From contig SVSO01000034.1 in the NCBI GenBank assembly GCA_015064195.1, positions 1-18,179 of the forward strand: a stretch of DNA of 18,179 nt, in the 5' to 3' direction. Below are positions 1 to 17,466 of this stretch, piece after piece. Within the stretch, counting starts at the first letter, position 1; the number at the start of each line of letters is the position of its first letter. The notes below the pieces were generated by a model, which ran no database searches, was not told the origin of the DNA, and was given only the letters and a program-made list of their open reading frames with translations. Origin of the DNA: Oscillospiraceae bacterium. GTDB taxonomy: Bacteria; Bacillota_A; Clostridia; Oscillospirales; CAG-272. The position numbers and the translations under genes are program-made.

Positions 1-347
1 TGGCGATTGAGCTGCCACGGCCATTCACGGTAGCCGTTGTAGGTGGGATTGTGCTCCCAGTCGATGGCTCCTTCAAAGGTGTACGGAACGCGGCAGGAGA
101 TGAAGGTGTGCGCCATGGCACGCTCAGCCGCTTCCCGAACCGCGTCCGCATTTGCCGCAAGAGCTTCCTTTTTCCCGGCGAGATACTGTCCGGCATCCAG
201 ATGCTCGCGCACATAGGCGGCGAAGATCTTCTGCGCGCCGGCAATATCCCCCTGCTCTGCCAGCTTGGGCAGGCATTGCAGCTCCGGAATTCCGGTATCC
301 AGACAGGCGGTGAAAAATTCTCTGTCACTGAGTCTTGTAGTATTCAT
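1..347 (-). CDS. Heparinase II/III family protein, N-terminal part (runs off the window)
   Basis: Only the first 115 codons are present; the gene continues beyond base 1. The start ATG (347-345) is preceded by GGAGG at good spacing. There is no signal peptide, so the product is probably cytoplasmic. The segment is alpha-helical (about residues 6-85) and ends in FEGAIDWEHNP (91-101) followed by YNGYREWPWQLNR (103-115). That pattern is typical of the N-terminal helical domain of heparinase II/III-type lyases, which cleave uronic-acid-containing polysaccharides or oligosaccharides by beta-elimination. The catalytic Tyr/His region lies outside the window, so activity and substrate cannot be judged. 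It begins 12 bases after the stop of the upstream solute-binding protein gene, so the two are very likely co-transcribed. Another alpha/alpha-toroid lyase family is possible but less likely. Confidence 0.8.
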   Translation of the reverse strand, partial: MNTTRLSDREFFTACLDTGIPELQCLPKLAEQGDIAGAQKIFAAYVREHLDAGQYLAGKKEALAANADAVREAAERAMAHTFISCRVPYTFEGAIDWEHNPTYNGYREWPWQLNR

Positions 348-359
348 GGAAATCCTCCG

Positions 360-1796
360 TCAGTCCAGTGCCGCAGTAAAGCTTTCGATGCTTGCGTTGA
401 TGGCGGAAATATTCTTTGCCAGCTCGGAGGCCAGATTGCCGTTGTGATTCTGCACCATGCGGTAGAGCATCCAATATCCCCAGTCAAAGTAGATGCCCGC
501 ATCGCAGGACAGATTGCCCAGCACCATTTCCAGCATCTCGGCGGATTCGTCATCCCGCAGTGCCTTGGTGGTAACTGCCGTCTCGATGAATGCCGGCGTC
601 ACAAGCTCCCGGCCGTAATAGCCCAGCGCTTCGCAGATGTGACCGGCCTTGTCAAGCTCGGTATTGGTGGCAGGAACCATGAGCCACGAATCCCAGAAGC
701 CGCTCAGCGGCGCGGTATATTCCTCCGATTCCTCCCACTTGGGGAACGGGATCACGCCGAAATCCGCCTCAAAGGTGCGCGCCATATTCATGCGCTGGAG
801 GTTGGTGATCCAGAAAAACAGAGCGTTCCGGTTGATCAGCACATTGGGCCCGCCCTCCTTGAAGCGTCCGTCCTGCATGGCGATCACTGAATCCGTATCA
901 TCGATGATGTCTATGTAATGCTGTACGATGTCCATCACGCGGGGAGAATCCAGCGAGGAGGTGGGAACGCCGTCCGCATCCTTTTTGACCAGCGATTCGC
1001 CGGCCTGATTGATGAACTGCATGATGTTCAGTGCTTCCGTGCAGAAGCCGAAGCTGTCCCGATCCACATTGACCACCGTATCGCCGTCCAGATCCGCCTG
1101 CGCCAGCTTTCCGGTTTCGTGGGCATAATCAATGGTGAATTTTCCCTGCCGCACCACGTCGTACATATCGATGTTGTGGATCTCGGCAAGCTCTTTATTA
1201 AAGAAGGTAATGGTTGCAGAGCCGTTGGTGGTGACGATCATGTCGCCGGTGGCGGACAGCGTTTTGCCCTTAAAGGTCATGGCTTCCACAGACTTTTCCG
1301 CCCACCATTCGTTTGTCAGATCCAGCGTGTCAATATCGGAAAGGGGCACGAGGAAATCCGGCTCGGTGAAGATCTTGGAGGTCAGCTGACCGGGGATGTA
1401 TGCCACATCGAACTCATCATCGCCTGCGAGAATGGTATTTTTGAGCGAGGAAAGATCCTGACTGTTCCGGCCGCCCTCGATCTTGCAGCCCTTGATGTCC
1501 ACATTGTACAGCTCCTCCACGATGCGGTTGCGCTCATAGATGGAGTCGTTGAGCACGTCGCCGTTCTGCTCCTCGATGAACGCAGACTGCATCCAGTCTC
1601 CCACATCATTTTCGGCGATGATGAACGGCTCACCGTTATAATCCGCGTCGGCGGGCGTAAATGCCGGGGCAGTCTCCGCCGGTGTGGTTTCCGCATCGGA
1701 GGCCGCGGTGGTATCCACAGCGCCGCTGCCGCCGCAGGCAGCGAGAGACGCCAGCATACTCGTCAATATCATCAGAATTATCGCATTTTTCGTCAT
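360..1796 (-). CDS. Extracellular solute-binding lipoprotein, family 1 type (SBP1)
   Basis: This 478-residue protein would capture a sugar or oligosaccharide outside the membrane for an ABC importer. It has a lipoprotein signal peptide: MTKN start, hydrophobic core, LAAC lipobox with lipidated Cys21. A Ser/Thr/Ala/Asp-rich linker follows to about residue 52. Motifs shared with the other two binding proteins here are NGDVLND (78-84), AGDDEFD (124-130), WW (164-165), a D235-x-D237-G-D239 loop resembling a dockerin calcium loop, and DFGVIPFP. A ribosome site AAAGGAG precedes the ATG by about 8 bases. The gene lies between an AraC regulator and a heparinase-type lyase on the same strand. No permease or ATPase gene is adjacent, so its transporter must be elsewhere. 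The family assignment is firm; the ligand is unknown, and acidic oligosaccharide is an inference from the neighbours. Confidence 0.9.
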   Translation of the reverse strand: MTKNAIILMILTSMLASLAACGGSGAVDTTAASDAETTPAETAPAFTPADADYNGEPFIIAENDVGDWMQSAFIEEQNGDVLNDSIYERNRIVEELYNVDIKGCKIEGGRNSQDLSSLKNTILAGDDEFDVAYIPGQLTSKIFTEPDFLVPLSDIDTLDLTNEWWAEKSVEAMTFKGKTLSATGDMIVTTNGSATITFFNKELAEIHNIDMYDVVRQGKFTIDYAHETGKLAQADLDGDTVVNVDRDSFGFCTEALNIMQFINQAGESLVKKDADGVPTSSLDSPRVMDIVQHYIDIIDDTDSVIAMQDGRFKEGGPNVLINRNALFFWITNLQRMNMARTFEADFGVIPFPKWEESEEYTAPLSGFWDSWLMVPATNTELDKAGHICEALGYYGRELVTPAFIETAVTTKALRDDESAEMLEMVLGNLSCDAGIYFDWGYWMLYRMVQNHNGNLASELAKNISAINASIESFTAALD

Positions 1797-1846
1797 CGAT
1801 TTTGTCTCCTTTATAATAATTTATAATAATTTTCCCGCAAAATCGG

Positions 1847-1877
1847 GGGGAGGGTACACCTATAGTATACCCTCCCC
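1847..1877 (-). repeat. 10-bp perfect dyad overlapping the SBP1 promoter
   Basis: GGGGAGGGTA (1847-1856) and TACCCTCCCC (1868-1877) are perfect inverted copies with an 11-base spacer. On the minus strand the first-transcribed arm reaches into the -10 box and the second arm lies just past the predicted start point. It could be a terminator-like hairpin for read-through from the upstream AraC gene, or an operator. The U-run after it is poor (CCGATTTT), so termination would be weak. Confidence 0.6.
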
Positions 1878-1892
1878 TGCAAGCTTTGTAAA
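1864..1892 (-). promoter_or_regulatory. Promoter of the SBP1-heparinase operon
   Basis: On the minus strand, -35 TTTACA (1892-1887), a 17-base spacer and -10 TATACT (1869-1864) give a good sigma-A promoter with a predicted start near 1857. The leader to the ATG at 1796 is about 60 bases. The -10 overlaps the dyad at 1847-1877. Confidence 0.65.
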
Positions 1893-1927
1893 TGTGTTTT
1901 CATCAGATATTTTTTTCGATGTGGTAA

Positions 1928-2746
1928 TTACATACGCCTTGTTTCGATCCGGTGTTCCGGCATCGCACCCACATCCTTTGCCATCCGCCGGTAATCCGTG
2001 GGTGACAGTCCCGTCTGCTGATGGAACACGCGGGAGAAATAGAACCGGTCGCAGAAGCCCGCCCCCTCGGATACCTCCTTGATGGAAAGCTCCGATTCCG
2101 AAAGCATCCGCTTCGCCGCTTCGATATGCTCCTGCAATGCCCATTCGCTGATAGCCATTCCCGTCTCCCGCTTGAACAGCTCCGAGCAGTAGGACGGCGC
2201 AAGATGCACCCTCCCGGCGATATCCTCCACTGTCATGCGTCGGGACAGATCATCCAAAATGACCCGCTTCATCTGCGTGACATGGGGATTTTCCGCCGGT
2301 TTTTCCACCGGCTGATTGAGCCGCAGAAGCTCACATACCGCCAGCGCAAGCAGGGCATCGCTTCTCTCCTGCCAGAACTGCTCTTTCGCGCCGTATGTGG
2401 CGATCATCCGCCGCAGGGCAATGTCAAGCTCCGCAGAACGGGTATGCTTCACACAGTGCTCCAGCGGAAGCGGCTTTTCACCGCCGGCGTAATCGAAATT
2501 GATGGCCGTGTAGAAGACCGGTGCGGTGCAGGCCTTCCGATCGCGCAGCATTCCCTTGGGGCAGTAATAAGCCTCACCCGCACGGACGGTCAGCGGCTCT
2601 CCGTCCACCATATAGGTGAATTCTCCCTCATACACGATCGTCAGATCATGACTCTGGGCAATCTCATACCGCTCCGCCGACTGCCTGCGGACATGGAGCA
2701 GATATTCGATGCGGAAATTATGATATGGTTCCGGACTCTTTGACAT
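1928..2746 (-). CDS. AraC family transcriptional regulator (AraC-1)
   Basis: This is a 272-residue regulator. The N-terminal half is a cupin-like sensor (about 8-100, with YMVDGEPLTVRAGEAYYCPKG). The C-terminal AraC/XylS DNA-binding domain (about 155-255) has two helix-turn-helices: MTVEDIAGRVHLAPSYCSELFK (171-192) and the region around SIKEVSEGAGFCDRFYFSRVF (221-241), followed by the family signature GLSPTDYRR. An in-frame ATG lies 45 bases upstream at 2791, but a TATAAT -10 box overlaps it, so that codon is not in the mRNA. The start chosen here has AGCAGGTG just upstream. It is divergent from uxuA and upstream of SBP1 and the lyase on the same strand, so it probably activates one or both in response to a sugar. 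The ligand cannot be read from the sequence. Confidence 0.9.
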   Translation of the reverse strand: MSKSPEPYHNFRIEYLLHVRRQSAERYEIAQSHDLTIVYEGEFTYMVDGEPLTVRAGEAYYCPKGMLRDRKACTAPVFYTAINFDYAGGEKPLPLEHCVKHTRSAELDIALRRMIATYGAKEQFWQERSDALLALAVCELLRLNQPVEKPAENPHVTQMKRVILDDLSRRMTVEDIAGRVHLAPSYCSELFKRETGMAISEWALQEHIEAAKRMLSESELSIKEVSEGAGFCDRFYFSRVFHQQTGLSPTDYRRMAKDVGAMPEHRIETRRM

Positions 2747-2789
2747 ATTACACCTGCTCTCTGTAATCCCGGATGGATTTGATACATTC

Positions 2790-2818
2790 ATTATACATCA
2801 TCCCGGCGGAAAAATCAA
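2790..2818 (-). promoter_or_regulatory. Promoter of AraC-1
   Basis: On the minus strand, TTGATT (2818-2813), a 17-base spacer and a perfect TATAAT (2795-2790). Predicted start is near 2783, which leaves the ATG at 2746 as the first usable start codon. Confidence 0.75.
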
Positions 2819-2838
2819 TCGGCATCCGCAAAAAACTG

Positions 2839-2867
2839 TTGCATTTTCAAGGAAACTGTGGTATAAT
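2839..2867 (+). promoter_or_regulatory. Promoter of uxuA
   Basis: TTGCAT (2839-2844), a 17-base spacer and a perfect TATAAT (2862-2867). It is divergent from the AraC-1 promoter, with only 20 bases between the two -35 boxes, so one bound regulator could control both. The leader is about 57 bases. Confidence 0.7.
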
Positions 2868-2930
2868 AGGGGTGGAGTGACAATCGTACACTTAAAACCG
2901 TGTATCCACACGCTTTCAAGGAGGAAACTT

Positions 2931-4013
2931 ATGCCAATGCAAATGACATTCAGATGGTACGGCGAAGGCAACGACCGCATTAAACTGTCTGATATCAAGC
3001 AGATCCCCGGTGTAACGGGAATTGTCTGGGCTCTGCATCACAAGATGCCGGGCGAGGTTTGGGAAGTCGAGGAGATCGCCGAGGTCAAGCGCCAGCTTGA
3101 TGAGTACGGCTTCAACATGGATGTTGTCGAATCCGTAAATGTTCACGACGATATCAAGATCGGTCTGCCCACCCGCGACGGTTATATCGAAAACTACAAA
3201 ACCACCATCCGCAATCTTTCCAAGTTCGGTGTCAAGGTGATTTGCTACAACTTCATGCCGATTTTCGACTGGACGAGAAGCAATCTGTTCCATCCCGTAG
3301 GCGATGGTTCCACCGCGCTTTTCTATGAGAAGAATATGATTCAGGATGACTACAACGCCATGGCGAAATACATTCTGGATTTCACCGAAAAATACAATAT
3401 GTCCTTCCCCGGCTGGGAGCCTGAGCGTATGGCGAAGCTGGATGAGCTGTTCAAGGCTTACGAGGGCATCGACCACGAAAAGCTGTGGGCAAACCTCAAG
3501 TATTTCTTAGAAGCCATCATGCCCACCTGCCGCGAGTGCGACATCAAAATGGCCATCCACATGGACGATCCGCCGTGGGATATCTTCGGACTTCCGCGTC
3601 TGCTCATCAATGAGGAAAACATCGACCGCTTCCTCAGAATGGTGGACGATGAGTACAACTGCCTCACCCTCTGCTCCGGCAGCCTGAATGCGGATCCCAA
3701 CAACAATGTTGCGGATATCGTCCGCAAGCACTGCGACCGCATTGCATTTGCCCACATCAGAAACGTGAAGCATTTCGAGAACGGCGACTTCTCCGAAGCA
3801 AGCCACAGAGACTGCGACGGCGATACCGGCATTCTTGAGATCCTCAAGGCGTACCACGACTGCGGCTTCGAGGGCTATATCCGCCCTGACCACGGCAGAC
3901 ACCTCTGGAATGAAGGCCCCGGCAATGTCCGCCCCGGCTACGGACTGTACGACCGCGCCCTCGGCATCATGTATATGCTGGGCGTATGGGACAGTCTCGA
4001 CAAGTTCAACTGA
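2931..4013 (+). CDS. uxuA: Mannonate dehydratase
   Basis: This 360-residue enzyme dehydrates D-mannonate to 2-keto-3-deoxy-D-gluconate in the cytoplasmic glucuronate pathway. The TIM-barrel sequence carries the family landmarks: ALHHKMPGEVW near the N-terminus, AIHMDDPPWDIFGLPR (208-223), LCSGSL (247-252), FAHIRNVK (273-280), RPDHGRHLWNE (318-328) and RPGYGLYDRALG (334-345). His210, Cys248, His275 and Asp320 fit the metal-binding set, and His321 and Tyr337 the catalytic pair, described for the Streptococcus enzyme; the correspondence is by motif, not by alignment. The open frame continues upstream to an ATG at 2877, but AAGGAGG lies directly before 2931. Length suits the Gram-positive type, shorter than the E. 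coli enzyme. It is monocistronic with its own promoter and terminator; uxaC, uxuB, kdgK and kdgA are not in the window. Confidence 0.96.
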   Translation: MPMQMTFRWYGEGNDRIKLSDIKQIPGVTGIVWALHHKMPGEVWEVEEIAEVKRQLDEYGFNMDVVESVNVHDDIKIGLPTRDGYIENYKTTIRNLSKFGVKVICYNFMPIFDWTRSNLFHPVGDGSTALFYEKNMIQDDYNAMAKYILDFTEKYNMSFPGWEPERMAKLDELFKAYEGIDHEKLWANLKYFLEAIMPTCRECDIKMAIHMDDPPWDIFGLPRLLINEENIDRFLRMVDDEYNCLTLCSGSLNADPNNNVADIVRKHCDRIAFAHIRNVKHFENGDFSEASHRDCDGDTGILEILKAYHDCGFEGYIRPDHGRHLWNEGPGNVRPGYGLYDRALGIMYMLGVWDSLDKFN

Positions 4014-4029
4014 TTCTGACATCACGCAT

Positions 4030-4066
4030 AACAGGCACTGCACAAACCGTGCAGTGCCTGTTTTTT
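4030..4066 (+). terminator. Rho-independent terminator of uxuA
   Basis: CAGGCACTGCAC (4032-4043) pairs perfectly with GTGCAGTGCCTG (4049-4060) around an AAACC loop, followed by six T. It begins 16 bases after the uxuA stop. Confidence 0.95.
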
Positions 4067-4106
4067 CGACAGTGGAGCATCCTAAAGAAGCCTGCTTTTT
4101 CCGGAA

Positions 4107-4120
4107 TTTTTGCGCAAAAA
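4107..4120. promoter_or_regulatory. 14-bp perfect palindrome upstream of a -35 box
   Basis: TTTTTGCGCAAAAA is a perfect palindrome ending 3 bases before the TTGACA box of the next gene. The position suits an operator, or an A/T-rich UP-like element. No known regulator can be assigned. Confidence 0.45.
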
Positions 4121-4123
4121 ATA

Positions 4124-4153
4124 TTGACAAAACTGCCGTTTTCATGATATAAT
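4124..4153 (+). promoter_or_regulatory. Consensus promoter of the secreted repeat protein gene
   Basis: Perfect TTGACA (4124-4129), an 18-base spacer and perfect TATAAT (4148-4153). Predicted start is near 4160. This excludes the ATG at 4154 as a start codon. Confidence 0.85.
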
Positions 4154-4183
4154 ATGTTAGATTTTATAAAACGGAGGTTTTCA

Positions 4184-6061
4184 ATGAAACACATCGTTAA
4201 AATTCTCATGACAATGGCAATCATCGCCCTGCTTGCGGTTGGCGCAAGTGCGATCACAGAGTCGGAGCTGACCGCCAATGGCTACACCGATGGCGGCGAC
4301 ATTACGAATACCGGCTATGCTTATATCGACGGCTCGCTTCCCACGGCCAAGAAATACTACACCGCAGGCAGCGGTTTTCTCACCGCCGAAGCTTCCAGCG
4401 GCAGTCTCCTCGTCACGCTCTATGACGCGACCATCAATGTGAACACGGATGTGACCACGGGCGACGACAATTGGTACGGCATTTACTGCGAAGATTACCC
4501 TCTCATCGTTGAACTGAACGGCACGAACAGCATCACCGTGAAGCCCGATAACAGCATCGGACTCGGATACGGCATTTACAATGACAGCACTGATATCACC
4601 ATTCACGGCAATGGAGGCGGAAGCCTTGCCATCGCTGCAACCCAGGACGGTATCGGCGGCAAAGGCGCTGTCACCATCGATAGCTGCACCCTCACGCTGG
4701 ATTCGCCGTTTGATATCTATTTATATAATGCCTCCACCATCACCATCAAAGATTCCACTGTGACCGGCAAGTCCTATTTCTATGCGAATCAGCTTATTAC
4801 CCAGAACAGCTCGGTTTTGGTCCCCAGATTTTTCGATAACTATGGAAATGCCACGATCCTTTCTGACTACACCATCGACGACTATACGACATCTTCCAGC
4901 AATGATCTGACCATCACCTCCGGCGTTACCTTAACCGTGGATGATGGCGGCAAACTTAAACTGGATGGCGACCTCATCCTTGAATCCGGCGCATCGGTTG
5001 TCAACAACGGCACTATTCTTTTCTACAGCGATCTCACCTACGACGAGATCAGCAGTCTGGGCATCACCGGCACAGGCATGATCTATCTGGATTCGACCGG
5101 CGCTCATTATGATAGCCTCGGCAATGTATACAACTTTGTTGACACCCTCACCCTCAGATATTTTGATGATGCCGGTTCTTGTTACACGTGGGATTACGAT
5201 ACACAGACCCTGACACTGGAGGACGGATTCCACTGCACGGATGATATCGACTTCCGCGTTGACGGCGATGTGACCGTTATCGTGAAGGGCGAAGCCTATG
5301 TGGAAGACGATTTTGAGAACGACGATCCTTCCACCGATATCACCATCACCGGCGGCGGCACGCTGACAGTTGACGGCGACATTGAGATCGAACACGAGGA
5401 TCATGACACTTCCCTCACCATCGCGGCCGGCACTACGGTCATCACAAACGAGGAAATGGAAGTTGACAATCTCTATCTCTACGGCACGCTGGAGGTTTAC
5501 AACGACAACGAGAACGAAGCCATCGAAATCAACGACAGAATGATCGTCGGAAGCGATGCCACCCTCATCATCTCTCAGGAATACGATGAATACCAGGCGA
5601 TCGTTTTCTACAACGAGCTGAATCGTCCCACAAGCCAGCTGTTCAGCGGCATGAATGCGACCCTCGCTGCCGGAGAGGATGAATTCGGAACCTCGATTTA
5701 CTTCCTTGCGGACAAATCGGGCAATATCCTCTATGAGATCGGCGTGGAGGATGACAACAATCTGTTCGGCGGCACGAATTTCATGGCGATGATCGTGCTG
5801 TGGCGCATGAGCCAGCGGTACGCAGTGGACGTGGACGTGGAAGGCTTGGGCACGGTTGACGTTGCCGGCGCGGATGAAACGGACGGTGCGCTCACTGCAA
5901 AGTGGAGCACCGATGTTGACTTCACCGCAACGCCCGCTGACGGCTGGGAGCTGTCCGACATCAAGGTTGACGGCGAGTCCGTAGCCATCGACAATTTCCG
6001 CATCAACAACATCAAGAAAAATCACGCCATCACCTTCGTTTTCACCGAAATCGCGGCATAA
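4184..6061 (+). CDS. Secreted beta-rich repeat protein with C-terminal InlB-like repeat
   Basis: The product is 625 residues with a classical signal peptide: MKHIVK, hydrophobic core to about residue 20, probable cleavage after ASA near residue 23. The body is rich in Thr, Asp, Gly and short beta-strand units such as DITIHGNGGGSLAI, GAVTIDSCTLTLDS, DLTITSGVTLTV and DITITGGGTLTVDGDIEI, suggesting a beta-helix or stacked beta-sandwich surface. The unit YTWDYDTQTLTLEDG resembles the WxYDxxTxTLTL motif of putative carbohydrate-binding repeats in clostridial exoproteins. The last 81 residues match the divergent InlB B-repeat pattern (GLGTV...ATPADGWELSDIKVDGESV...NHAITFVF). No LPXTG, SLH or choline-binding anchor is seen, so it is probably released or loosely held. 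The start is set by CGGAGG before 4184 and by the promoter. Function is unproven; adhesion or glycan binding is an inference. Confidence 0.85.
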   Translation: MKHIVKILMTMAIIALLAVGASAITESELTANGYTDGGDITNTGYAYIDGSLPTAKKYYTAGSGFLTAEASSGSLLVTLYDATINVNTDVTTGDDNWYGIYCEDYPLIVELNGTNSITVKPDNSIGLGYGIYNDSTDITIHGNGGGSLAIAATQDGIGGKGAVTIDSCTLTLDSPFDIYLYNASTITIKDSTVTGKSYFYANQLITQNSSVLVPRFFDNYGNATILSDYTIDDYTTSSSNDLTITSGVTLTVDDGGKLKLDGDLILESGASVVNNGTILFYSDLTYDEISSLGITGTGMIYLDSTGAHYDSLGNVYNFVDTLTLRYFDDAGSCYTWDYDTQTLTLEDGFHCTDDIDFRVDGDVTVIVKGEAYVEDDFENDDPSTDITITGGGTLTVDGDIEIEHEDHDTSLTIAAGTTVITNEEMEVDNLYLYGTLEVYNDNENEAIEINDRMIVGSDATLIISQEYDEYQAIVFYNELNRPTSQLFSGMNATLAAGEDEFGTSIYFLADKSGNILYEIGVEDDNNLFGGTNFMAMIVLWRMSQRYAVDVDVEGLGTVDVAGADETDGALTAKWSTDVDFTATPADGWELSDIKVDGESVAIDNFRINNIKKNHAITFVFTEIAA

Positions 6062-6147
6062 GATCCCGTATCTCATCCTGTCGCCCCCCATGGAGAATGC
6101 CGGCCAGTGATTGTCGCTTGCCGGGCGACCACCTCCTTGGCAGATTA

Positions 6148-6156
6148 TGCTATAAT
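6148..6156 (+). promoter_or_regulatory. Extended -10 promoter of the VWA gene
   Basis: TGCTATAAT is a perfect -10 with the TGn extension. No good -35 is found at 16-18 bases upstream; TTGGCA at 6137 is too close. Predicted start is near 6163, giving a leader of about 45 bases. Confidence 0.6.
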
Positions 6157-6196
6157 ATGACTGTAAGGTAAACAAACCGAGCAGTCATATTTTTTT
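6154..6196 (+). terminator. Terminator-like hairpin whose left arm overlaps a promoter -10
   Basis: AATATGACTG (6154-6163) and CAGTCATATT (6182-6191) form a perfect 10-bp inverted repeat with an 18-base loop, and a T7 run ends at 6196. No other terminator follows the secreted-protein gene ending at 6061, so it may end that transcript. The stem is A/T-rich and the loop long, so strength is uncertain. Transcripts from the TGCTATAAT promoter would start at about the end of the left arm and so could not form the hairpin. Confidence 0.5.
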
Positions 6197-6207
6197 GGAG
6201 GTACAGC

Positions 6208-6849
6208 ATGAACAACATCACAGAAATCGTATTTATCCTTGACAAGAGCGGTTCCATGGCAGGGCTGGAGGCGGACACCATCGGCGGCTTCAACGCGATG
6301 ATCGACAAACAGCGCAGGCTGGAGGGCGACACGTGGGTATCCACCGTCCTGTTCGACAACGAGTCCACCGTGCTCCACGACCGCGTGAAGCTGGAGCGCA
6401 TCCCGAACATGACCGACCGCGACTACACCGTGGGCGGATGCACGGCGCTTCTCGATGCGGTGGGCGGCGCGATCCGTCACATCGGCAACATCCACAAATA
6501 TGCACGGCCCGAGGATGTGCCGGCGAAGACCATGTTCGTCATCACCACCGACGGCATGGAAAACGCCAGCCGGCGGTATGATTACGAAGCCGTGCGGAAA
6601 ATGATCGAAGTGCAGAAGGAGCGGGGCTGGGAATTTCTCTTCCTCGGTGCAAACATTGATGCGGCGGCGGAAGCAAAGCGGTTCGGCATCGATGAGACGC
6701 ACGCGGCAAACTATCACTGCGACAAGGCGGGAACTGCGCTCAACTACGAGGCGGTATCGGATGCCATCGCAAACGTGCGGCGCGGCAAAAAGCTGAGCGC
6801 GCGCTGGAAAGCGAGAATTGACGAGGATTATCAGAGCCGTTCGCGGTGA
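6208..6849 (+). CDS. Small cytoplasmic von Willebrand factor A (VWA) domain protein
   Basis: The 213-residue protein is almost entirely one VWA (Rossmann-like) domain. The metal-ion-dependent adhesion site is complete: DKSGSM (Asp12, Ser14, Ser16), Thr79 in GGCTALLDA and Asp115 in ITTDGMEN. No signal peptide or membrane segment is present, so it acts inside the cell, probably in metal-dependent protein binding. The last 20 residues are basic and charged (RRGKKLSARWKARIDED). GGAGG lies 7 bases before the ATG. It has its own promoter, and a strong hairpin follows at 6879. VWA proteins often pair with a MoxR-type AAA ATPase, but none is nearby. The partner and process are unknown. Confidence 0.9.
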   Translation: MNNITEIVFILDKSGSMAGLEADTIGGFNAMIDKQRRLEGDTWVSTVLFDNESTVLHDRVKLERIPNMTDRDYTVGGCTALLDAVGGAIRHIGNIHKYARPEDVPAKTMFVITTDGMENASRRYDYEAVRKMIEVQKERGWEFLFLGANIDAAAEAKRFGIDETHAANYHCDKAGTALNYEAVSDAIANVRRGKKLSARWKARIDEDYQSRSR

Positions 6850-6873
6850 TGGGAATCCATCCGCTCCAAGAGG

Positions 6874-6906
6874 AAAAAGATCCCTCCCATTTGCATGGGA
6901 GGGATC
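6874..6906 (-). terminator. Terminator between the convergent VWA and SBP2 genes
   Basis: GATCCCTCCCAT (6879-6890) pairs perfectly with ATGGGAGGGATC (6895-6906) around a TTGC loop. On the minus strand the stem is followed by five T, fitting the end of SBP2, which stops at 6921. On the plus strand only GTTT follows, so it probably works less well for the VWA gene. Confidence 0.88.
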
Positions 6907-6920
6907 GTTTCGCTTTGCGA

Positions 6921-8369
6921 TCAGTTTTCAAGCGTCCGGTACTGCTCGTTGATCTTGTCGATATTCGCCTGACAGGTCTTCTCGTTCTTCGCATAGAAGG
7001 AGGCGAAATTCATGCTGGGATTCTTTACCAGATTGTAGCCCGTGGAGTTGAGTGCGCCGATGCCGTAGAAATAGCCGATGTCGCAGACACGGCCGTCACG
7101 GATGATGTCGATCATCGCGGCGGATTCCTCATCGCGGGTGTATTTGGTCTGAAGCACCACGTCGTAATAGGTGGGCACTACATCACGCCAGCCAAGATAT
7201 GCCAGCTGTTCGATCACGATGCTCATCATCTCGTGATCCGTTGCCGTGATGGGGATGAGAATGAGGCTGGAGCCTGCATCCACGTTGGCGTAATATTTGT
7301 CGATGGATTCGTCCATCTTGGGCCACGGAACGATGCCGAAATCATCCGTCATGTCGCGCATTCCCATGGTGCTTCTGATCTGGATATCGACGAACATCGA
7401 CCGGCCTTCCTTGAACACCTGAGCCGGGATAGGATCTTTTTCCGTGTAGATGTAAGCACACGAATCCGCAGTGAAGGCAAAGAAGCGGTCAAATATGTCA
7501 ACCGTCTGCTCGGTGTTGAGCGTTAGCATCATCGCGCCGTCCTCATCCTTGCCGCAGACACGCTGATTGCCGGAATACAGCACCTGAATCGGGCCGCCCC
7601 ACCATGAAGTCGAATATCCCACCTGATCGTTCTCGGCATCGATGACTGTATCGCCGTTGAGATCCTTGGCGGCCAGTCGTGAATATTCGGCGAATTTGTC
7701 AAAGGTCCACTTGCCGTCCAGCACAAGCTGATAGGGATATTCCAGCTTATACTCCTCAAACATCGCCTTATTGAACAGCATACACGTGGATGCACCGGTG
7801 TTCAGATGGGAAATGTCACCGATGGCGGCGTAGATCTTGCTGTAGAAGGTGTATGCCGCACGGGCATCCTGATTCCACCACGGTTTCTCAAGATCCACAT
7901 AGGGCATCTTGCTGTTCCAGTCGGCAACCATTCCTTCGCTGACATAGGTATTGACATACCGTCCATGGGGAACGATCATATCATAGGTATCGTCGCCGGC
8001 GAGGATGGAGCTTCCCGCCTTCTGACCGTATTTGTCGCCGGGATTGCGGAACATCTCGATCTTGACATTGAACTGCTCCTCAACGGAGGAATTCCGTGCA
8101 AAGACGGCATCGTTCATAATGTCACCGTTTGCTTCCGGCACATACAGATCGTAGTAAAAGCTGTCGTCATCGCGCATATAGATCGTGATGACCTCGCCGC
8201 CGTAATCCTTGGCCGGAAGATCGGGCTTCATCGTATCGGCGGTCGTTTCAGTGGGCGCAGTGGTGTCCGCAGCGGAGGTATCCGTACCAGCCCCTGCACT
8301 GCCGCAGGAAGCAATCTGCGCGGTCAGCAAACCGCAGAGCAGCATGGTGGAAATCGCTTTTTTTGTCAT
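6921..8369 (-). CDS. Extracellular solute-binding lipoprotein, family 1 type (SBP2)
   Basis: A 482-residue ABC-type binding protein anchored by a lipid on Cys22 (IASC lipobox after MTKKAISTMLLCGLLTAQ). An Ala/Thr-rich linker extends to about residue 53. It repeats the motif order of SBP1: NGDIMND (81-87), AGDDTYD (124-130), KPWW (162-165), GKWTF (219-223), the calcium-like loop D236-x-N238-G-D240 and DDFGIVPWP. It is therefore a paralogue. The ATG is preceded by GAAAGGA at a rather long spacing of about 11 bases. It is monocistronic, with its own promoter and terminator, and divergent from the AraC-2 gene. No permease, ATPase or catabolic enzyme shares its transcript, so its ligand cannot be guessed beyond a sugar or oligosaccharide. 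Confidence 0.9.
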   Translation of the reverse strand: MTKKAISTMLLCGLLTAQIASCGSAGAGTDTSAADTTAPTETTADTMKPDLPAKDYGGEVITIYMRDDDSFYYDLYVPEANGDIMNDAVFARNSSVEEQFNVKIEMFRNPGDKYGQKAGSSILAGDDTYDMIVPHGRYVNTYVSEGMVADWNSKMPYVDLEKPWWNQDARAAYTFYSKIYAAIGDISHLNTGASTCMLFNKAMFEEYKLEYPYQLVLDGKWTFDKFAEYSRLAAKDLNGDTVIDAENDQVGYSTSWWGGPIQVLYSGNQRVCGKDEDGAMMLTLNTEQTVDIFDRFFAFTADSCAYIYTEKDPIPAQVFKEGRSMFVDIQIRSTMGMRDMTDDFGIVPWPKMDESIDKYYANVDAGSSLILIPITATDHEMMSIVIEQLAYLGWRDVVPTYYDVVLQTKYTRDEESAAMIDIIRDGRVCDIGYFYGIGALNSTGYNLVKNPSMNFASFYAKNEKTCQANIDKINEQYRTLEN

Positions 8370-8406
8370 AATATCAGCGTCCTTTCAGAGCAATCTTTAC
8401 ACTTTT

Positions 8407-8435
8407 ATTATACACGTTATCCCCCTCAAATTCAA
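8407..8435 (-). promoter_or_regulatory. Promoter of SBP2
   Basis: On the minus strand, TTGAAT (8435-8430), a 17-base spacer and perfect TATAAT (8412-8407). The leader to 8369 is about 30 bases. Confidence 0.75.
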
Positions 8436-8478
8436 TATGCGGTTTTTGCCATCCTTTAACAATATTTGACTTTTTTCC

Positions 8479-8507
8479 TTGACATCCCGGAAAAATTATG
8501 ATAAAAT
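8479..8507 (+). promoter_or_regulatory. Promoter of AraC-2
   Basis: Perfect TTGACA (8479-8484), a 17-base spacer and TAAAAT (8502-8507). Predicted start is near 8514, so the leader is only about a dozen bases and begins with the ribosome site GAGGTGA. This rules out a GTG start at 8517. Confidence 0.75.
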
Positions 8508-8525
8508 AATTGTGAGGTGAATATC

Positions 8526-9395
8526 GTGGAAAAGCTGGAATTTATCTCCCCCTATGTACGCTATGCCATTATCGGTTTTTTTCATAAATCCCAAAACAAG
8601 TATCTCTCCATCGAGCATTCCAATTTTCTGTTATTTGTCACGGAAGGCAGTTATGTGCACACCGTCAACGGCCAGCGCATCGTCATGTCGCCGGGAATGC
8701 TGCTTCTGATCCCGCCCTATACCAATCAGGTGCTGGGCGGCTGTCTGACCAAGGAAGTGACCATCGCGCTCATCGATTTTGACCTGTTCGACAGCGATGA
8801 GGGCCGCTCCATTCCCCATATCGTTGTCCCGGAATACCGGCGCATCAAGGAGCGGGAATTGCTGTTCACCAATTATCCCACGCTGGTCAAAGTGAACGCC
8901 GAGCAGTGGAAGCGGCATCTTCGCTGTGTCAGATACATCGTTGACAACTACCGGAAGACCGATCTTGCCGCCGGACTGCGCGTGAAAAGCTGTATGCTGG
9001 AGATCCTCTCCATTTTCCTCTCCGGCACACCGCAGAACGAAGCCTGCCCGCGCTCCTCTGCATCCCGCTACATCGCCGAGATCATCCGCTATATCGATCT
9101 GAACTACAAAGATCCCGCCCTCTCCGTTTCCGCCATCGCCGATCATCTGGGGCTCAGCCTTTCCTACCTGTCCCGCATCGCCGGTCAGGAGCTGGGCTGT
9201 CCGCTCTCCGAATACATCACAAAGATACGGCTTGAGAAGGCGAAGGATTTCTTCACCCTCGGACGCCGCGTTACCGATGTGGCCCAAAGCTGCGGATTCC
9301 TGTCCATCCAATCCTTCTCCCGCACCTTTCACCGCGCAGAGGGCATCAGTCCCAGCGAATACCTCAGACAGCTTTCCGAAAAAGAACAAAAATAA
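8526..9395 (+). CDS. AraC family transcriptional regulator (AraC-2)
   Basis: This is a 289-residue regulator starting with GTG at 8526, the first start codon with a ribosome site (GAGGTGA, 8514-8520) inside the predicted mRNA. A cupin-type ligand-binding half occupies about 10-95 (HTVNGQRIVMSPGMLLLIPPYTNQ). A helical linker follows. The AraC/XylS DNA-binding domain spans about 182-283, with helices LSVSAIADHLGLSLSYLSRIAG (199-220) and VTDVAQSCGFLSIQSFSRTF (249-268), then GISPSEYLRQL. It is divergent from SBP2, with 44 bases between the two -35 boxes, so SBP2 is the obvious target. The first and second half-domains differ enough from AraC-1 that these are distinct paralogues rather than a recent duplication. 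The inducer is unknown. Confidence 0.92.
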   Translation: MEKLEFISPYVRYAIIGFFHKSQNKYLSIEHSNFLLFVTEGSYVHTVNGQRIVMSPGMLLLIPPYTNQVLGGCLTKEVTIALIDFDLFDSDEGRSIPHIVVPEYRRIKERELLFTNYPTLVKVNAEQWKRHLRCVRYIVDNYRKTDLAAGLRVKSCMLEILSIFLSGTPQNEACPRSSASRYIAEIIRYIDLNYKDPALSVSAIADHLGLSLSYLSRIAGQELGCPLSEYITKIRLEKAKDFFTLGRRVTDVAQSCGFLSIQSFSRTFHRAEGISPSEYLRQLSEKEQK

Positions 9396-9429
9396 TGCGA
9401 AGTCCGGACGATTCACGCCCGGACTTCGC
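9388..9429. terminator. Shared terminator for convergent AraC-2 and AraC-3
   Basis: GCGAAGTCCGG (9397-9407) pairs perfectly with CCGGACTTCGC (9419-9429) across an 11-base loop. On the minus strand the stem is followed by ATTATTTTT, suiting AraC-3, which stops at 9441. It starts 1 base after the AraC-2 stop. The plus-strand side has no long T run, so it is less certain for AraC-2. Confidence 0.8.
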
Positions 9430-9440
9430 CATTTATGATC

Positions 9441-10262
9441 TTACACCGGATAGTACAGCTTCTTATACTTGAGCGGTGTGCAGCCGTAATATTTGCGGAA
9501 CAGCTCAATATATCCGGAATAATCGGGAAATCCGCTCATCTCGCACGCCTCCGATACCGAGTGACCGGCACGCAGCAGATGGGACGAATGCACCAGCCGC
9601 TTGTTTTGGAATGCGGCATACGGCGTGGTGTCAAGATGCTTTTTGAAATGCCGCTCCAGCGTGCTGATGCTCACATGGCAATCCGCCGCCAGCCGCCGGA
9701 TGTCCAGCTCCTCGGTCAGATTCTCATCCATATACCGCAAAGAGTAGCGGATATCCTCCGGAAAGGTGTAGGATGACATCGACTGCGAAATGCTGGTGCC
9801 CTCCTCGAGCAGCTTCATCATCTGAAAAAAGGCGATCTTGTAATCCAGCTCCGATCCTGCCTGCCCGAGAAAAACGTGCAGAACCTCCATCATTTTTGCT
9901 AACTGCTCCTCCGTCAGCTGGATCAGATTGGAATCGCCGCGCTCACGGTCAAAAAACAGGTGCAGCAGGTCGTTGTCCTGCTCCGTGCCGATGAGCAGCC
10001 AGAAATGCTCATGGGGCGCATTGCTGTGATAGATGCAGTGATGGTTCTCATACGGCCGGGTGATGATGACACTGCCGCGGGTGATGCCGTAGATGCCGCC
10101 CTCCACCTCAAAGGAAACATTTCCGCTCAGGTTGATGTAGATCTCGCATTCCTTGTGAATATGACAGCCCTCCGGCCGCGGATATCGCCTGTCCCCGGCA
10201 TGATAGGTCACGGACAGCGAAAGTTCACTGTTTTTCGACAGCTTCATCTGATTAAAACGCAT
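9441..10262 (-). CDS. AraC family transcriptional regulator (AraC-3)
   Basis: A 273-residue regulator. The N-terminal cupin sensor carries a His-x-His motif (CHIHKECEIYINLSG, 33-47) and RGSVIITRPYENHH (62-75), typical of sugar-sensing AraC proteins. The C-terminal DNA-binding domain (about 165-270) has helices LDIRRLAADCHVSISTLERHFK (186-207) and VSEACEMSGFPDYSGYIELFRK (236-257), then GCTPLKYKK. AAAGGGGG precedes the ATG by about 8 bases. It is divergent from the operon that begins with the GH28-like gene. Its TTGACA box directly abuts the weak -35 of that operon, an arrangement expected if AraC-3 activates the operon and possibly controls itself. The inducer may be a galacturonide, by inference from the target genes. 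Confidence 0.92.
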   Translation of the reverse strand: MRFNQMKLSKNSELSLSVTYHAGDRRYPRPEGCHIHKECEIYINLSGNVSFEVEGGIYGITRGSVIITRPYENHHCIYHSNAPHEHFWLLIGTEQDNDLLHLFFDRERGDSNLIQLTEEQLAKMMEVLHVFLGQAGSELDYKIAFFQMMKLLEEGTSISQSMSSYTFPEDIRYSLRYMDENLTEELDIRRLAADCHVSISTLERHFKKHLDTTPYAAFQNKRLVHSSHLLRAGHSVSEACEMSGFPDYSGYIELFRKYYGCTPLKYKKLYYPV

Positions 10263-10282
10263 GGCATCGCCCCCTTTTGCTT

Positions 10283-10312
10283 ATTATACCATGTTTTCTG
10301 CCGAAATGTCAA
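10283..10312 (-). promoter_or_regulatory. Promoter of AraC-3
   Basis: On the minus strand, perfect TTGACA (10312-10307), an 18-base spacer and perfect TATAAT (10288-10283). It is a strong promoter with a leader of about 15-20 bases. Confidence 0.75.
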
Positions 10313-10341
10313 TGGAAAAATGCAAAAATATTTGATATAAT
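10313..10341 (+). promoter_or_regulatory. Promoter of the GH28-like/SBP3/EamA operon, weak -35
   Basis: Perfect TATAAT (10336-10341), but the hexamer 17 bases upstream is only TGGAAA (10313-10318). A strong -10 with a poor -35 suits an activator-dependent promoter. Confidence 0.55.
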
Positions 10342-10382
10342 AGAATTACAGCGATCATTCACAAACGACGGAGGTAAAATCT

Positions 10383-11747
10383 ATGAAAGTAATCAAAATT
10401 CTGGCAAGCACCGTGGCGAAGCTTGACTCCAATGTTCACACCGGCGGCGGAACGGATGACACTGCCGCACTGCAGGGCGTGCTGGATCTTGCAAAGGACG
10501 GCGATACCGGTGTACATCTCGTCATGGACGGCGCGGCGCTCATCACCAAGCTGAAGCTTCATTCCAATACCACCATCGAATGCATGAACAAGGACTGCGG
10601 CTTCTATCAGATCGATCATACCGATGATTCCATGATTACCAACGCCGAGTGGAATCATTACGAAACCAAGACCCGCAATATCTCCCTCCTCGGCGGCACT
10701 TACAATCAGAACTGTCTGAATCAGGCCCACGACAACAAGCGTGAGGCGGAGTATTACACCACCCCCGACGGACGGACACTCAAGGAGTTCCGCTTCACGC
10801 TCTGCATCGAATTCTACGGCGTGCAGAACCTGCTCGTCCGGGACATCACCATCGCCGGCTTCCGCACCTTCGCATTTACGGTGGGATGCTTTAAAAACGT
10901 TACGGTGGAGGATGTGTGGCTGGATATGCAGCACCACATGATGGGCAATCAGGACGGCTTCCATTTCTGGGGACCGGGACAGTATCTCACCGTGAGAAAC
11001 TGCGGCGGATGCGTCAGCGATGACATCATGAACATCGGCCCGGATGAGATGGACAAGATCTCCGACATCACGGATGTGCTGGTGGACGGCATTTTCTGCG
11101 ACGATGCGGAACAGGCCATCCGACTTCTCACCCGCGGCACCGGTCGGCTGGATCGTGTCACCATCCGCAATGTGACGGGCCAGTACCGCTCCTACGGCTT
11201 CTACATCAACCCGTGGTTCCCCGAATCCTGCGGCAATTTCGGTAATATTTTCTTTGAAAATATCGACCTCAAGGAACATAAGCACACCTATCCCTACTAC
11301 GGCCCGATCCTGTTCTCGGTGGGCGGAAATATCGAATGCCTCACGCTCAAGAATATCCGCCATCACAACAGCTACGACGACCGGCGGCTCATCGACTTCG
11401 GCCTGCCCTTCTACAGCAGTTACAATAAAACACTGGATGAAAGCTCGCTGGAGCATACCCAGCGGATGCAGACGGTCATCATCGACGGGCTGACCATCAC
11501 GGAAAACGAATCCGATCCCATGGGCAAGACTTACATCAAGATCCACGAAAATATCGAAACAATGGTGCTGAAAAACGTTCTCGTGCTGAAAGATCAGGAG
11601 CGCGACAACGGTACATTCCTCGATTTCGCCGAGATGGGACACATCGACAATCTCATCACGGAATCCATCTGCATCAAGGGTGTGGAAACGGTATGCAGCG
11701 ATCGCAGCCGCATCGGAAGCCAGACCCATCCGAATGACGAACTTTAA
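10383..11747 (+). CDS. Cytoplasmic pectin-lyase-fold protein, GH28/pectate-lyase-3-like
   Basis: The 454-residue product is a right-handed parallel beta-helix protein. It opens with TGGGTDDTAALQGVLDLA (20-37), the usual start of the pectate-lyase-3/polygalacturonase superfamily. Repeated beta-coils follow, such as NLLVRDITIAGF, NVTVEDVWLDM, YLTVRNCGGC, DRVTIRNVTG and IFFENIDL. Two acidic sites in the right order recall GH28 polygalacturonase: NQDG (189-192, for NTD) and SDD (212-214, for DD). The GHG and RIK motifs of classical GH28 are not seen. There is no signal peptide, so it would act on imported oligosaccharides. GGAGG lies 8 bases before the ATG. It leads an operon with SBP3, 19 bases downstream. 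The substrate is probably a uronide; lyase, hydrolase or epimerase activity cannot be distinguished. Confidence 0.8.
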   Translation: MKVIKILASTVAKLDSNVHTGGGTDDTAALQGVLDLAKDGDTGVHLVMDGAALITKLKLHSNTTIECMNKDCGFYQIDHTDDSMITNAEWNHYETKTRNISLLGGTYNQNCLNQAHDNKREAEYYTTPDGRTLKEFRFTLCIEFYGVQNLLVRDITIAGFRTFAFTVGCFKNVTVEDVWLDMQHHMMGNQDGFHFWGPGQYLTVRNCGGCVSDDIMNIGPDEMDKISDITDVLVDGIFCDDAEQAIRLLTRGTGRLDRVTIRNVTGQYRSYGFYINPWFPESCGNFGNIFFENIDLKEHKHTYPYYGPILFSVGGNIECLTLKNIRHHNSYDDRRLIDFGLPFYSSYNKTLDESSLEHTQRMQTVIIDGLTITENESDPMGKTYIKIHENIETMVLKNVLVLKDQERDNGTFLDFAEMGHIDNLITESICIKGVETVCSDRSRIGSQTHPNDEL

Positions 11748-11766
11748 TTCAGGAGGTAAATCTAAC

Positions 11767-13269
11767 ATGAAAACCCGCATAACCACAGCGCTCCTTCTCA
11801 TTGCTATGCTCGCTTCCGTATCCTGCGGCGGCGAAGCGTCAGTTGACACCACAGCAGACACCGCTTCCGACACCACCACGGCGGAAGTGACCACCTCGAT
11901 CCCGGAGCTTGACATTCCCGATGATGTGGACTACGGCGGCGCGACCTTCACCGTGGAAGCCATCGATGCCCGGGGAAAGCCCACACAGGCCATCAACAAT
12001 CCCTTCTCGCTGGAAGAAGCCAACGGCGACATCCTCAACGATATTGTTTTCGAGGCGGTAGAGCGGGTGGAGGAGCGGCTGAACATCCAGTTTGCGCAGC
12101 AGTATTCCAGAGACGCCTTCGACTACGGCCGTCTTCGCACGAACGCCATGTCCGGTGACGGCTCCATCGATGCTTTCTCCTACATCGACCGCTTCGGCGT
12201 CAATCAGACAGCGGACGGCTGTGTCATCCCCTACGGCGACATTCCCAACATCAATCTGGAAAATCCGTGGTGGTATGAGGACATCAACAATGCCATCTCC
12301 ATCGCCAACAAGCTTTGCTATGCCGTCGGCGCGATGAATCTGGACGTGGTCTCCCGAATGACCACACTGCTGTACAACAAGCGCATCCACGAGGAGCTTC
12401 AGCTGGAAAGCCCCCACAAGCTGATCGAGCAGGGCAAGTGGACCATGGATAAGCTGTACGAGATGATCGAAGCGGCGGCGCGTGACATCGACGGCGACAA
12501 TCAGATGACCGTGGATGATATCTGGGGCGCAGTTTATACTCACGACGCATGGTACAACAACTTCCACTCCCTTTCCGGCTATCACATCGTGAAAAAGGAT
12601 GGAGACGATCTGCCTTACATGAACGTGGCCGGAAACGAGCCGCTGTTTGACACATGGCAGAGACTGCTTGCTTACACGCTGGAAGGCAATGTATTCGTTG
12701 TCAGCTACGCAGGCGATACCAAGAAATATGACATCGAAAAATCCACCTACACCGAGCCGCTCTATATGTTCATGGACGGCAAGGCACTGTTCACCAGCAC
12801 CCTGAATCTGGGTCATCTCGGCTATCTGCGCGATATGAAGGACGATTTCGGAATCCTGCCCTTCCCGCACGTGGAGGAGGAAGAACCGGGTGCGGTTTAC
12901 GGCGGCTTCAATCCCGCAGTCGGTCAGCCGCTGTTTGTACCGTCGTCCAACAGCGATCCCGCCCGCACCGGCTATGTATTCGAGGCACTTTGCTACGAAT
13001 ATTACACCACCGTTGTCGATCCCTACATTGAAAGCGTCGCTCTTGTCAAGCAGACCCGCGACGAGCAGTCCACCGAAATGCTCAAAATGATGCTCTCCGA
13101 CATTCAGGTAGACTTCTCCTGCGGATACTGGTACGATGATACCAACCACTGGTGGTACGATGTGTTCCGCTCCGGTAAGGATACCTTCGTCTCCTCCTAC
13201 GAAAAGCAGGCTCCCAAGGCGGAAGCCGCGCTGGAAAAAACCATCGCAATTTTTGAAAGCTTCCATTAA
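11767..13269 (+). CDS. Extracellular solute-binding lipoprotein, family 1 type (SBP3)
   Basis: A 500-residue ABC-type binding protein, third of its kind in the window. The start MKTRITT is set by AGGAGGT 9 bases upstream; the open frame reaches further up but into the preceding gene. The lipobox ASVSC places the lipidated Cys at residue 20, followed by a Thr/Asp/Ala-rich linker to about 50. Shared motifs are NGDILND (86-92), ENPWWYED (165-172), GKWTMDKL (223-230), the loop D240-x-D242-G-D244 and DDFGILPFP. It is co-transcribed with the GH28-like protein, which makes an oligouronide ligand plausible, and with the EamA transporter 12 bases downstream. MalF/MalG-type permeases are absent. Confidence 0.92.
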   Translation: MKTRITTALLLIAMLASVSCGGEASVDTTADTASDTTTAEVTTSIPELDIPDDVDYGGATFTVEAIDARGKPTQAINNPFSLEEANGDILNDIVFEAVERVEERLNIQFAQQYSRDAFDYGRLRTNAMSGDGSIDAFSYIDRFGVNQTADGCVIPYGDIPNINLENPWWYEDINNAISIANKLCYAVGAMNLDVVSRMTTLLYNKRIHEELQLESPHKLIEQGKWTMDKLYEMIEAAARDIDGDNQMTVDDIWGAVYTHDAWYNNFHSLSGYHIVKKDGDDLPYMNVAGNEPLFDTWQRLLAYTLEGNVFVVSYAGDTKKYDIEKSTYTEPLYMFMDGKALFTSTLNLGHLGYLRDMKDDFGILPFPHVEEEEPGAVYGGFNPAVGQPLFVPSSNSDPARTGYVFEALCYEYYTTVVDPYIESVALVKQTRDEQSTEMLKMMLSDIQVDFSCGYWYDDTNHWWYDVFRSGKDTFVSSYEKQAPKAEAALEKTIAIFESFH

Positions 13270-17254: not shown

Positions 17255-17279
17255 GTGGAACTGCGAAAGTTTTACCGAA
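17238..17279. promoter_or_regulatory. Inverted repeat TTCGGTAAAA / TTTTACCGAA flanking a -35 box
   Basis: TTCGGTAAAA (17238-17247) and TTTTACCGAA (17270-17279) are perfect 10-bp inverted copies, centres 32 bp apart, about three helical turns. The -35 of the aldo/keto reductase promoter lies between them. This is a good operator candidate, perhaps for the regulator starting at 17539. Confidence 0.5.
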
Positions 17280-17400
17280 GCGGCATCGTTCCGGCATCCC
17301 AGCGTGTCCGCGATGTCTGTATGCTCAATGACGACCCGGAAGCTCCTTACGGTACGCTGTTTGCCGCAGACATGGGCATCATGGACAGATACGTGAACAG
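17255..17400 (+). other. Coding-like segment of unknown origin in a 360-base intergenic region
   Basis: Bases 17179-17538 hold no confident gene. Within them the plus-strand frame from GTG 17255 reads ELRKFYRSGIVPASQRVR and then LNDDPEAPYGTLFAADMGI, with codon use like neighbouring genes, to about 17400. There is no ribosome site or promoter for it. The open frame runs on through the TTGCAA/TATAAT promoter of the next gene, which real coding would not be expected to do. It may be a decayed gene fragment or chance. No family was recognised. Confidence 0.25.
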
Positions 17401-17437
17401 CGGAAAAAACAAAATCCTATCACCCGGAATATTTTCC

Positions 17438-17466
17438 TTGCAAACGCCTCGCGGTAATGTTATAAT
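17438..17466 (+). promoter_or_regulatory. Promoter of the sugar-sensor regulator gene
   Basis: TTGCAA (17438-17443), a 17-base spacer and perfect TATAAT (17461-17466) with a TGT extension just before it. An AT-rich run (TATATATATATAG) follows in the leader. Predicted start is near 17473, giving a leader of about 65 bases. Confidence 0.75.

What the first reader, a model, noticed from the sequence alone, without database searches (positions are those of the whole stretch)
360..13269. Three paralogous binding lipoproteins, each beside its own AraC regulator, with no ABC permease or ATPase
SBP1, SBP2 and SBP3 share one motif order (lipobox, NGDhhND, WW, GK[FW]T, D-x-[DN]-G-D, DFGhhP[FW]P) and each neighbours a different AraC gene: AraC-1/SBP1, SBP2/AraC-2, AraC-3/SBP3. 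Ordinary sugar loci encode SBP-permease-permease together. Three orphan SBP modules in 13 kb suggest one shared permease with swappable receptors, or SBPs used for surface capture or sensing. Two modules also carry a uronide-active enzyme.
Basis: partly seen in the sequence, partly recalled or inferred. Interest (0 to 1): 0.7.

Follow-up and report, generated by a model that had tools for sequence, protein, structure and literature searches.

The report
Orphan sugar-binding receptors sharing distant transporters
Three surface proteins of an uncultured Clostridia-like bacterium that look built to catch sugars have no ABC transporter genes beside them; related genomes carry up to more than a hundred such receptors, which probably share a few transport machines encoded elsewhere.

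Summary
SBP1, SBP2 and SBP3 are lipoproteins of one sugar-binding-protein family (28-31% identical). The SBP2 model has a MalE/UgpB-type fold. No ABC permease or ATPase was found in the window. One correction: a GH28-like gene separates SBP3 from AraC-3. The three are old paralogues, not a local triplication.

The window's genome is not held, so the rest comes from relatives. Four Clostridia MAGs have 90, 133, at least 150 and 140 family members against 17, 19, 18 and 20 permease domains of all importer types. In G001 (best SBP2 match), 0 of 86 members lie within 2 kb of a placed permease (15 of 17 placed); 52 lie near an AraC gene (shifted mean 23). SBP and AraC similarity are not significantly correlated there, and AraC genes are rare in two other SBP-rich genomes.

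Across 147 genomes of the order the family co-occurs with a locus holding two permease pairs: both 28, locus only 1, family only 6. G001 lacks its marker gene. 'Shared permease, swappable receptors' is the best reading, with a named candidate; coupling is not shown.

The parts
360..1796 (-). SBP1, lipoprotein sugar-binding protein, orphan; putative operon AraC-1 > SBP1 > heparinase II/III-like
   Evidence: (SBP_bac_1 25.8 bits, cut-off 26)
1928..2791 (-). AraC-1 regulator with cupin-like N-terminal domain
   Evidence: HTH_AraC 1.8e-19, HTH_18 3.8e-19; Cupin_2 just below cut-off
2931..4013 (+). UxuA mannonate dehydratase, divergent from AraC-1; start 2931 inferred from an AAGGAGG just upstream and the Pfam start
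   Evidence: (PF03786 3.3e-150)
6921..8369 (-). SBP2, lipoprotein sugar-binding protein, orphan, divergent from AraC-2; AlphaFold2 model pLDDT 91.4
8517..9395 (+). AraC-2 regulator; counterpart pair with SBP2 in G001 (L148), 44% identical
9441..10262 (-). AraC-3 regulator, divergent from GH28-like and SBP3
   Evidence: AraC_binding 2.7e-12, HTH_18 7e-18
10383..11747 (+). GH28-like (pectin-type) glycoside hydrolase, between AraC-3 and SBP3; just below the Pfam cut-off
   Evidence: PF00295 2.7e-4, 20.6 vs 22.9 bits
11767..13269 (+). SBP3, lipoprotein sugar-binding protein, orphan, directly after the GH28-like gene
13282..14148 (+). EamA-type secondary transporter, 12 bases after SBP3 on the same strand; relation to SBP3 unproven
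3..347 (-). start of a heparinase II/III-like gene running off the window, downstream of SBP1
   Evidence: PF16889 1.5e-10

Best explanation
[not shown]
For: OB_MalK hits are 1-2 per genome in 10 of 10, a lower bound, since it missed the System 1 ATPase of G002 that one search shows. 0 of 86 SBPs in G001 lie within 2 kb of a permease, 15 of 17 placed; none of 79 SBP loci, 147 SBPs, holds a CUT1 permease by my eight profiles. The locus has the same gene order in 13 of 13 genomes fetched for it, which were chosen because permease hits showed the pattern (G058 split over two contigs, one G3a seen only). G3b has one orthologue in 52 of 59 genomes of the family plus one split copy. Over the same 147 genomes, with a 400-bit line set after seeing the gap from 402 to 317 bits: both 28, SBPs only 6, locus only 1, neither 112; Fisher p 4e-23. 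With the looser E <= 1e-60: 31, 3, 26, 87; p 6e-13. System 2, used as control, shows no association: 2 of 8 above 370 bits, p 1.0; 2 of 19 at E <= 1e-40, p 0.24. In G006 a family SBP lies directly downstream of G3b (L137). The EAA pattern is found in 13 of 13 G3b and 13 of 16 G3a. MsmK has no permease in the stretches read at L100, L101, L102 and L116. Precedent for one ATPase serving several pectin importers: B. subtilis MsmX (PMC5730181, passages).
Confidence: 0.45

Rival explanations
1. The SBPs do feed shared permeases, but through System 1 (MalK1-F1-G1-SBP_bac_8) or System 2 (F2-G2 with HlyD-like and MacB-like proteins) or several of them, not the double-pair locus.
For: G001 has both systems and no G3b match. 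In G003 a family SBP is inserted between F1 and G1 (L091). System 1 was read in four genomes (G001, G002, G003, G008) and is suggested in G007, G009 and G010 by an OB_MalK hit beside PF00528 hits.
Against: System 2 orthologues show no association with the family over 147 genomes (2 of 8). System 1 brings its own SBP_bac_8 lipoprotein where scanned (L080) and was not seen among the permease loci read in G004, which has 140 SBPs (not all of G004's permeases were read).
Confidence: 0.25
2. The SBPs are not transport receptors but surface capture or sensing proteins: they hold glycans at the cell surface or report ligands to regulators.
For: Almost none has a permease beside it. 52 of 86 in G001 lie near an AraC gene. 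Non-transport roles were proposed for orphan TTT SBPs (PMC5994714, passages).
Against: The three window AraC proteins match only cupin-type and HTH domains, no membrane sensor domain, so a direct SBP-AraC signal has no evident route. Two genomes with 133 and >=150 SBPs have only 15 and 8 AraC genes. The SBP2 model is a two-lobed MalE-type receptor. The family tracks a permease locus.
Confidence: 0.17
3. Some SBPs work with secondary transporters beside them, for example SBP3 with EamA, as in the TAXI-GltS system.
For: EamA starts 12 bases after SBP3 on the same strand. An EamA-family protein is also among 30 near neighbours of SBPs in G002/G003 loci. SBP-linked secondary transporters exist (PMC12344293, start of abstract in a search listing only).
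Against: In 184 fetched loci only one homologue of the window's EamA (of four at E <= 1e-5) lies within 1 kb of a family SBP, and on the opposite strand (L061). EamA proteins are not known to need SBPs (recalled).
Confidence: 0.05
4. Ordinary loci in which the permease genes were lost by a local deletion in this strain.
For: None beyond the absence of permeases in the window.
Against: The counterpart of SBP2 in another species is orphan too, as are the 147 SBPs within the stretches held of 79 loci (some stretches end at contig ends).
Confidence: 0.02

Closest known systems
[not shown]
   Same: One SBP family grows to many copies while membrane components stay few; genes scattered over the genome and beside regulators; shared-permease and sensing hypotheses were both proposed.
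   Different: There the SBPs belong to the tricarboxylate family of proteobacteria. Here they are CUT1/MalE-type lipoproteins in Clostridia, and a specific ABC permease locus co-occurs with them.
B. subtilis pectin importers YtcQP-YteP and YesOPQ with the shared ATPase MsmX - PMC5730181, passages read
   Same: SBP and permease pairs for pectin fragments without their own ATPase, energised by one lone MsmX-type ATPase; a UgpC/MsmK-like standalone ATPase is found in relatives here.
   Different: There each SBP is encoded with its permease pair. Here dozens of SBPs have none, and the sharing would extend to the permease. Homology of YtcQ to this family was not tested.
UgpB / MalE (cluster D, CUT1) binding proteins
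   Different: About 480-500 residues, 7-15% sequence identity to the listed structures, genes not in an importer operon.
Shared ATPase MsmK of streptococci (PMC4519317, start of abstract in a search listing only)
   Same: One ATPase for several sugar ABC importers.
   Different: Sharing at the ATPase level only.

Membership tests
CUT1 / MalE-UgpB-type solute-binding protein | Two-lobed type-D SBP fold | tested here: met
   [not shown]
CUT1 / MalE-UgpB-type solute-binding protein | Pfam SBP_bac_1 above the gathering cut-off | tested here: inconclusive
   SBP2 29.7 bits (met), SBP1 25.8 (below 26), SBP3 no match
CUT1 / MalE-UgpB-type solute-binding protein | Export signal with lipobox cysteine | tested here: met
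   Pattern LAAC, IASC, SVSC starting at residues 17-19
Complete CUT1 importer locus | SBP encoded with two MalF/MalG-type permeases | tested here: not met
   None in the window; none in 79 SBP loci; 0 of 86 SBPs within 2 kb in G001, 15 of 17 permeases placed. Exceptions among relatives: L091 and L137
TTT-family orphan SBP expansion | Belongs to the TTT SBP family | tested here: not met
   Pfam gives SBP_bac_1 for SBP1 and SBP2 and no TTT family for any; fold of SBP2 is MalE type
Orphan SBP expansion (works like) | Many SBPs of one family, few matching membrane components | tested here: met
   In relatives G001-G004: 90 to >=150 SBPs vs 17-20 PF00528 domains; not testable in the window's own genome
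MsmX/MsmK-shared importers | Lone UgpC/MsmK-type ATPase away from permeases | tested here: met
   In relatives L100, L101, L102, L116; L105 has a permease pair 7 kb away; not found in G001; not testable in the window's own genome
MsmX/MsmK-shared importers | ATPase shown to energise the permease | not testable with these tools
   Needs genetics or biochemistry

The most novel reading that the evidence does not exclude
A clade of uncultured Clostridia runs glycan uptake as a hub: dozens to over 150 orphan CUT1 receptors plug into one single-copy locus that carries two permease pairs together with DUF5696 and Yip1/propeller accessory proteins, driven by one lone ATPase. It would be a Gram-positive ABC counterpart of many receptors feeding one machine.
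Probability: 0.35. Interest if true: 0.78.

Novelty: new variant of a known kind. Interest (0 to 1): 0.55.

Why it matters
ABC importers are usually read as one SBP with its own permease pair, and orphan SBPs as leftovers (general knowledge). If dozens of receptors share one permease, sugar uptake range in these Clostridia is set by receptor number and local regulators, and permease specificity must be broad. That bears on ABC importer specificity, on how gut bacteria diversify diets, and gives a testable role to DUF5696, for which a held-library search found no paper.

Tried and rejected
System 2 was my first candidate for the shared permease because it lacks an ATPase and a family SBP. It was dropped because its G2 orthologues (8 of 147 genomes above 370 bits) do not track the SBP family (2 of 8).

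Co-duplicating SBP-AraC cassettes: not supported within G001. Over 40 pairs (38 from G001, 2 from the window), Mantel r is 0.07, p 0.10; nearest-neighbour concordance is 1 of 40; paralogous SBPs 46-57% identical have AraC neighbours at 16-21%. I fetched 40 of the 43 G001 stretches that held such pairs. The window SBP2 and its G001 counterpart are mutual best; AraC-2's best match is that locus's AraC, but that AraC is slightly closer to another G001 AraC (46 vs 44%).

Sequence search of the PDB: SBP2 alone gave nothing; the A2 profile gave only weak hits, best AbnE 6rjy E 0.004 and a Bdellovibrio MalE 6ffl E 0.0045. Same-strand neighbours of SBPs in the 79 loci (74 of 75 scanned) are mixed, sugar enzymes and housekeeping genes; in the 25 most frequent families shown none matches more than 2. 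Of 30 neighbours in nine G002/G003 loci one is an RpiR regulator. Literature: seven searches on orphan SBPs, expansions, shared permeases and DUF5696 listed no report of this expansion; only open-licence papers are held. Searches for 'Flemingibacterium' and Lpl/Ytc names added no such report.

Rows dropped: I used 86 of 92 SBP matches (six short fragments left out), 119 of 121 AraC matches (two partial ones left out), and 15 of 17 PF00528 matches (two were not listed); contig lengths for the shifts were known for nine contigs and otherwise taken as the last feature.

Full report
What is there. The window encodes, in order: the start of a heparinase II/III-like gene (-), SBP1 (-), AraC-1 (-), UxuA (+), a large secreted-looking protein without a significant Pfam match (+), a VWA-type protein (below the Pfam cut-offs) (+), SBP2 (-), AraC-2 (+), AraC-3 (-), a GH28-like gene (+), SBP3 (+), an EamA transporter (+), a PHO4-type phosphate transporter (+), a DUF47 PhoU-like protein (+), an aldo/keto reductase with iron-sulphur sites (-), and a partial sensor-type regulator (+). 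SBP3 starts at 11767. AraC-3 and SBP3 are separated by the GH28-like gene.

Origins of the three. Database searches give each SBP its own close set: SBP1 78-43% identity, then full-length relatives at 35% or below; SBP3 61-41%, then 30% or below; SBP2 54% downwards, 1433 hits in all, besides P0004, 100% identical over 77% of SBP2. In some searches only the roughly 8000 candidates sharing most words were scored. In a 140-sequence FastTree, SBP1's set has support 1.0 (20 tips) and SBP3's 1.0 (6 tips), each apart from the others. They are old paralogues of one family, not a recent triplication.

The family in whole genomes. The window's genome is not held. A scan of species genomes with a profile of the family (A2) confirmed 165 relatives, of which the best 80 were kept as 79 loci, all from records titled Clostridia, Clostridiales, Eubacteriales, Oscillospiraceae, uncultured Ruminococcus or Flemingibacterium, many named after animal gut samples. 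The same genomes have 17, 19, 18 and 20 PF00528 permease domains of every importer type. OB_MalK gives one or two ATPases in 10 of 10 clade genomes; this is a lower bound, since it missed one in G002 (L087). Where I read the permease loci, several looked like phosphate, polyamine or nitrate/sulphonate systems (type names recalled from sequence features).

Orphan status. In G001, 0 of 86 substantial SBP genes lie within 2 kb of a PF00528 domain and 3 within 5 kb; 15 of its 17 permease domains could be placed. In the 79 loci (1.26 Mb, 147 SBPs) no CUT1 permease was found with my eight permease profiles; three loci have an ATPase hit, one of them the MsmK-type ATPase next to SBPs in G004. Two exceptions turned up elsewhere: a family SBP between F1 and G1 in G003 (L091) and one directly after G3b in G006 (L137).

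AraC pairing. In G001, 52 of 86 SBPs have an AraC helix-turn-helix within 1.7 kb; circular shifts give a mean of 23 and a maximum of 37 in 1000; 36 of the 52 are divergent with AraC upstream. The SBP2/AraC-2 pair has a counterpart in G001 (L148): 54% and 44% identity, same divergent layout. The SBPs are mutual best matches in the pair set; the AraC match is not reciprocal, since the G001 AraC is 46% identical to another G001 AraC. So pairing is real and can be conserved between species. But it does not behave as a co-inherited cassette: over 40 pairs SBP and AraC similarity are not significantly correlated (r 0.07, p 0.10), and G002 and G003, with 133 and at least 150 SBPs, have only 15 and 8 AraC genes.

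Which one tracks the family. In an evenly drawn sample of 147 genomes of G001's order, 34 have the SBP family at E <= 1e-20. G3b orthologues above 400 bits, a line set after seeing the gap from 402 to 317, occur in 29 and both in 28; Fisher p 4e-23. At the looser E <= 1e-60 the table is both 31, SBPs only 3, G3b only 26, neither 87, p 6e-13. The six with SBPs only are G001 and five genomes with one or two weak hits (G048, G053, G075, G122, G136); G110 has the locus only. System 2 G2 orthologues above 370 bits occur in 8 and both in 2, p 1.0; at E <= 1e-40 in 19 and both in 2, p 0.24. In G001's family, G3b is found in 53 of 59 genomes, one copy each except one split copy. Of the six without it, SBP counts are 90 (G001, E <= 1e-8), 56 (G193), 1, 1, 0, 0; of four checked with it, at least 150, 79, 35 and 0 (G187, a 0.9 Mb genome); the split-copy genome G180 has 18. 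The trend fits, with clear exceptions. Common descent could produce part of the association.

How it most likely works. Local regulators beside sugar enzymes switch on individual receptors. The receptors, tethered outside the membrane, bind different oligosaccharides and dock on a common permease, and a common MsmK/UgpC-type ATPase drives transport. The neighbours in this window (UxuA, GH28-like, heparinase II/III-like) suggest uronic-acid-containing glycans such as pectin; this is inference. B. subtilis gives a precedent for one ATPase driving several pectin importers (PMC5730181, passages), and TTT-family expansions give a precedent for many orphan SBPs with few membrane parts (PMC5994714, abstract and passages). 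Docking, energisation and ligands are not shown here.

Verdict. The isolated trio is a small sample of a genome-wide receptor expansion with a specific, testable candidate hub. The main weakness is that the genome with the best SBP2 match lacks the hub's marker gene in its assembly and the window's own genome is unavailable.

Noticed in passing
L089, L128-L141 (relatives): A strictly ordered locus with two CUT1 permease pairs, an NHL/Yip1 protein and a DUF5696 protein; its last permease is found in 53 of 59 family genomes, one copy each (one split); no paper on DUF5696 found in the held library.
   Followed up: partly
L082, L088, L092, L095, L110, L114 (relatives): A CUT1 permease pair in an operon with an HlyD/RND-adaptor-like protein, in three scanned loci a MacB-core protein and in two a weak SBP/propeller protein: an odd mix of importer and efflux-type parts.
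   Followed up: partly
window 13282-14148: EamA-type secondary transporter 12 bases downstream of SBP3, followed by PHO4 phosphate transporter and DUF47 genes.
   Followed up: partly
window 4154-6061: 635-aa secreted-looking protein with no significant Pfam match, between UxuA and a VWA-type protein (6208-6849).
   Followed up: no
G001 whole genome: 121 AraC-type HTH matches in a 3.0 Mb genome and 89 in G004, against 15 and 8 in two other SBP-rich genomes.
   Followed up: partly
L091 1772-6276 (G003): A family SBP gene sits inside System 1, between its two permease genes: the only such case among the loci read.
   Followed up: partly
window 17255-18177: Partial regulator-like gene with a LacI-type periplasmic-binding-like domain (17539-18177) at the right edge.
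   Followed up: no
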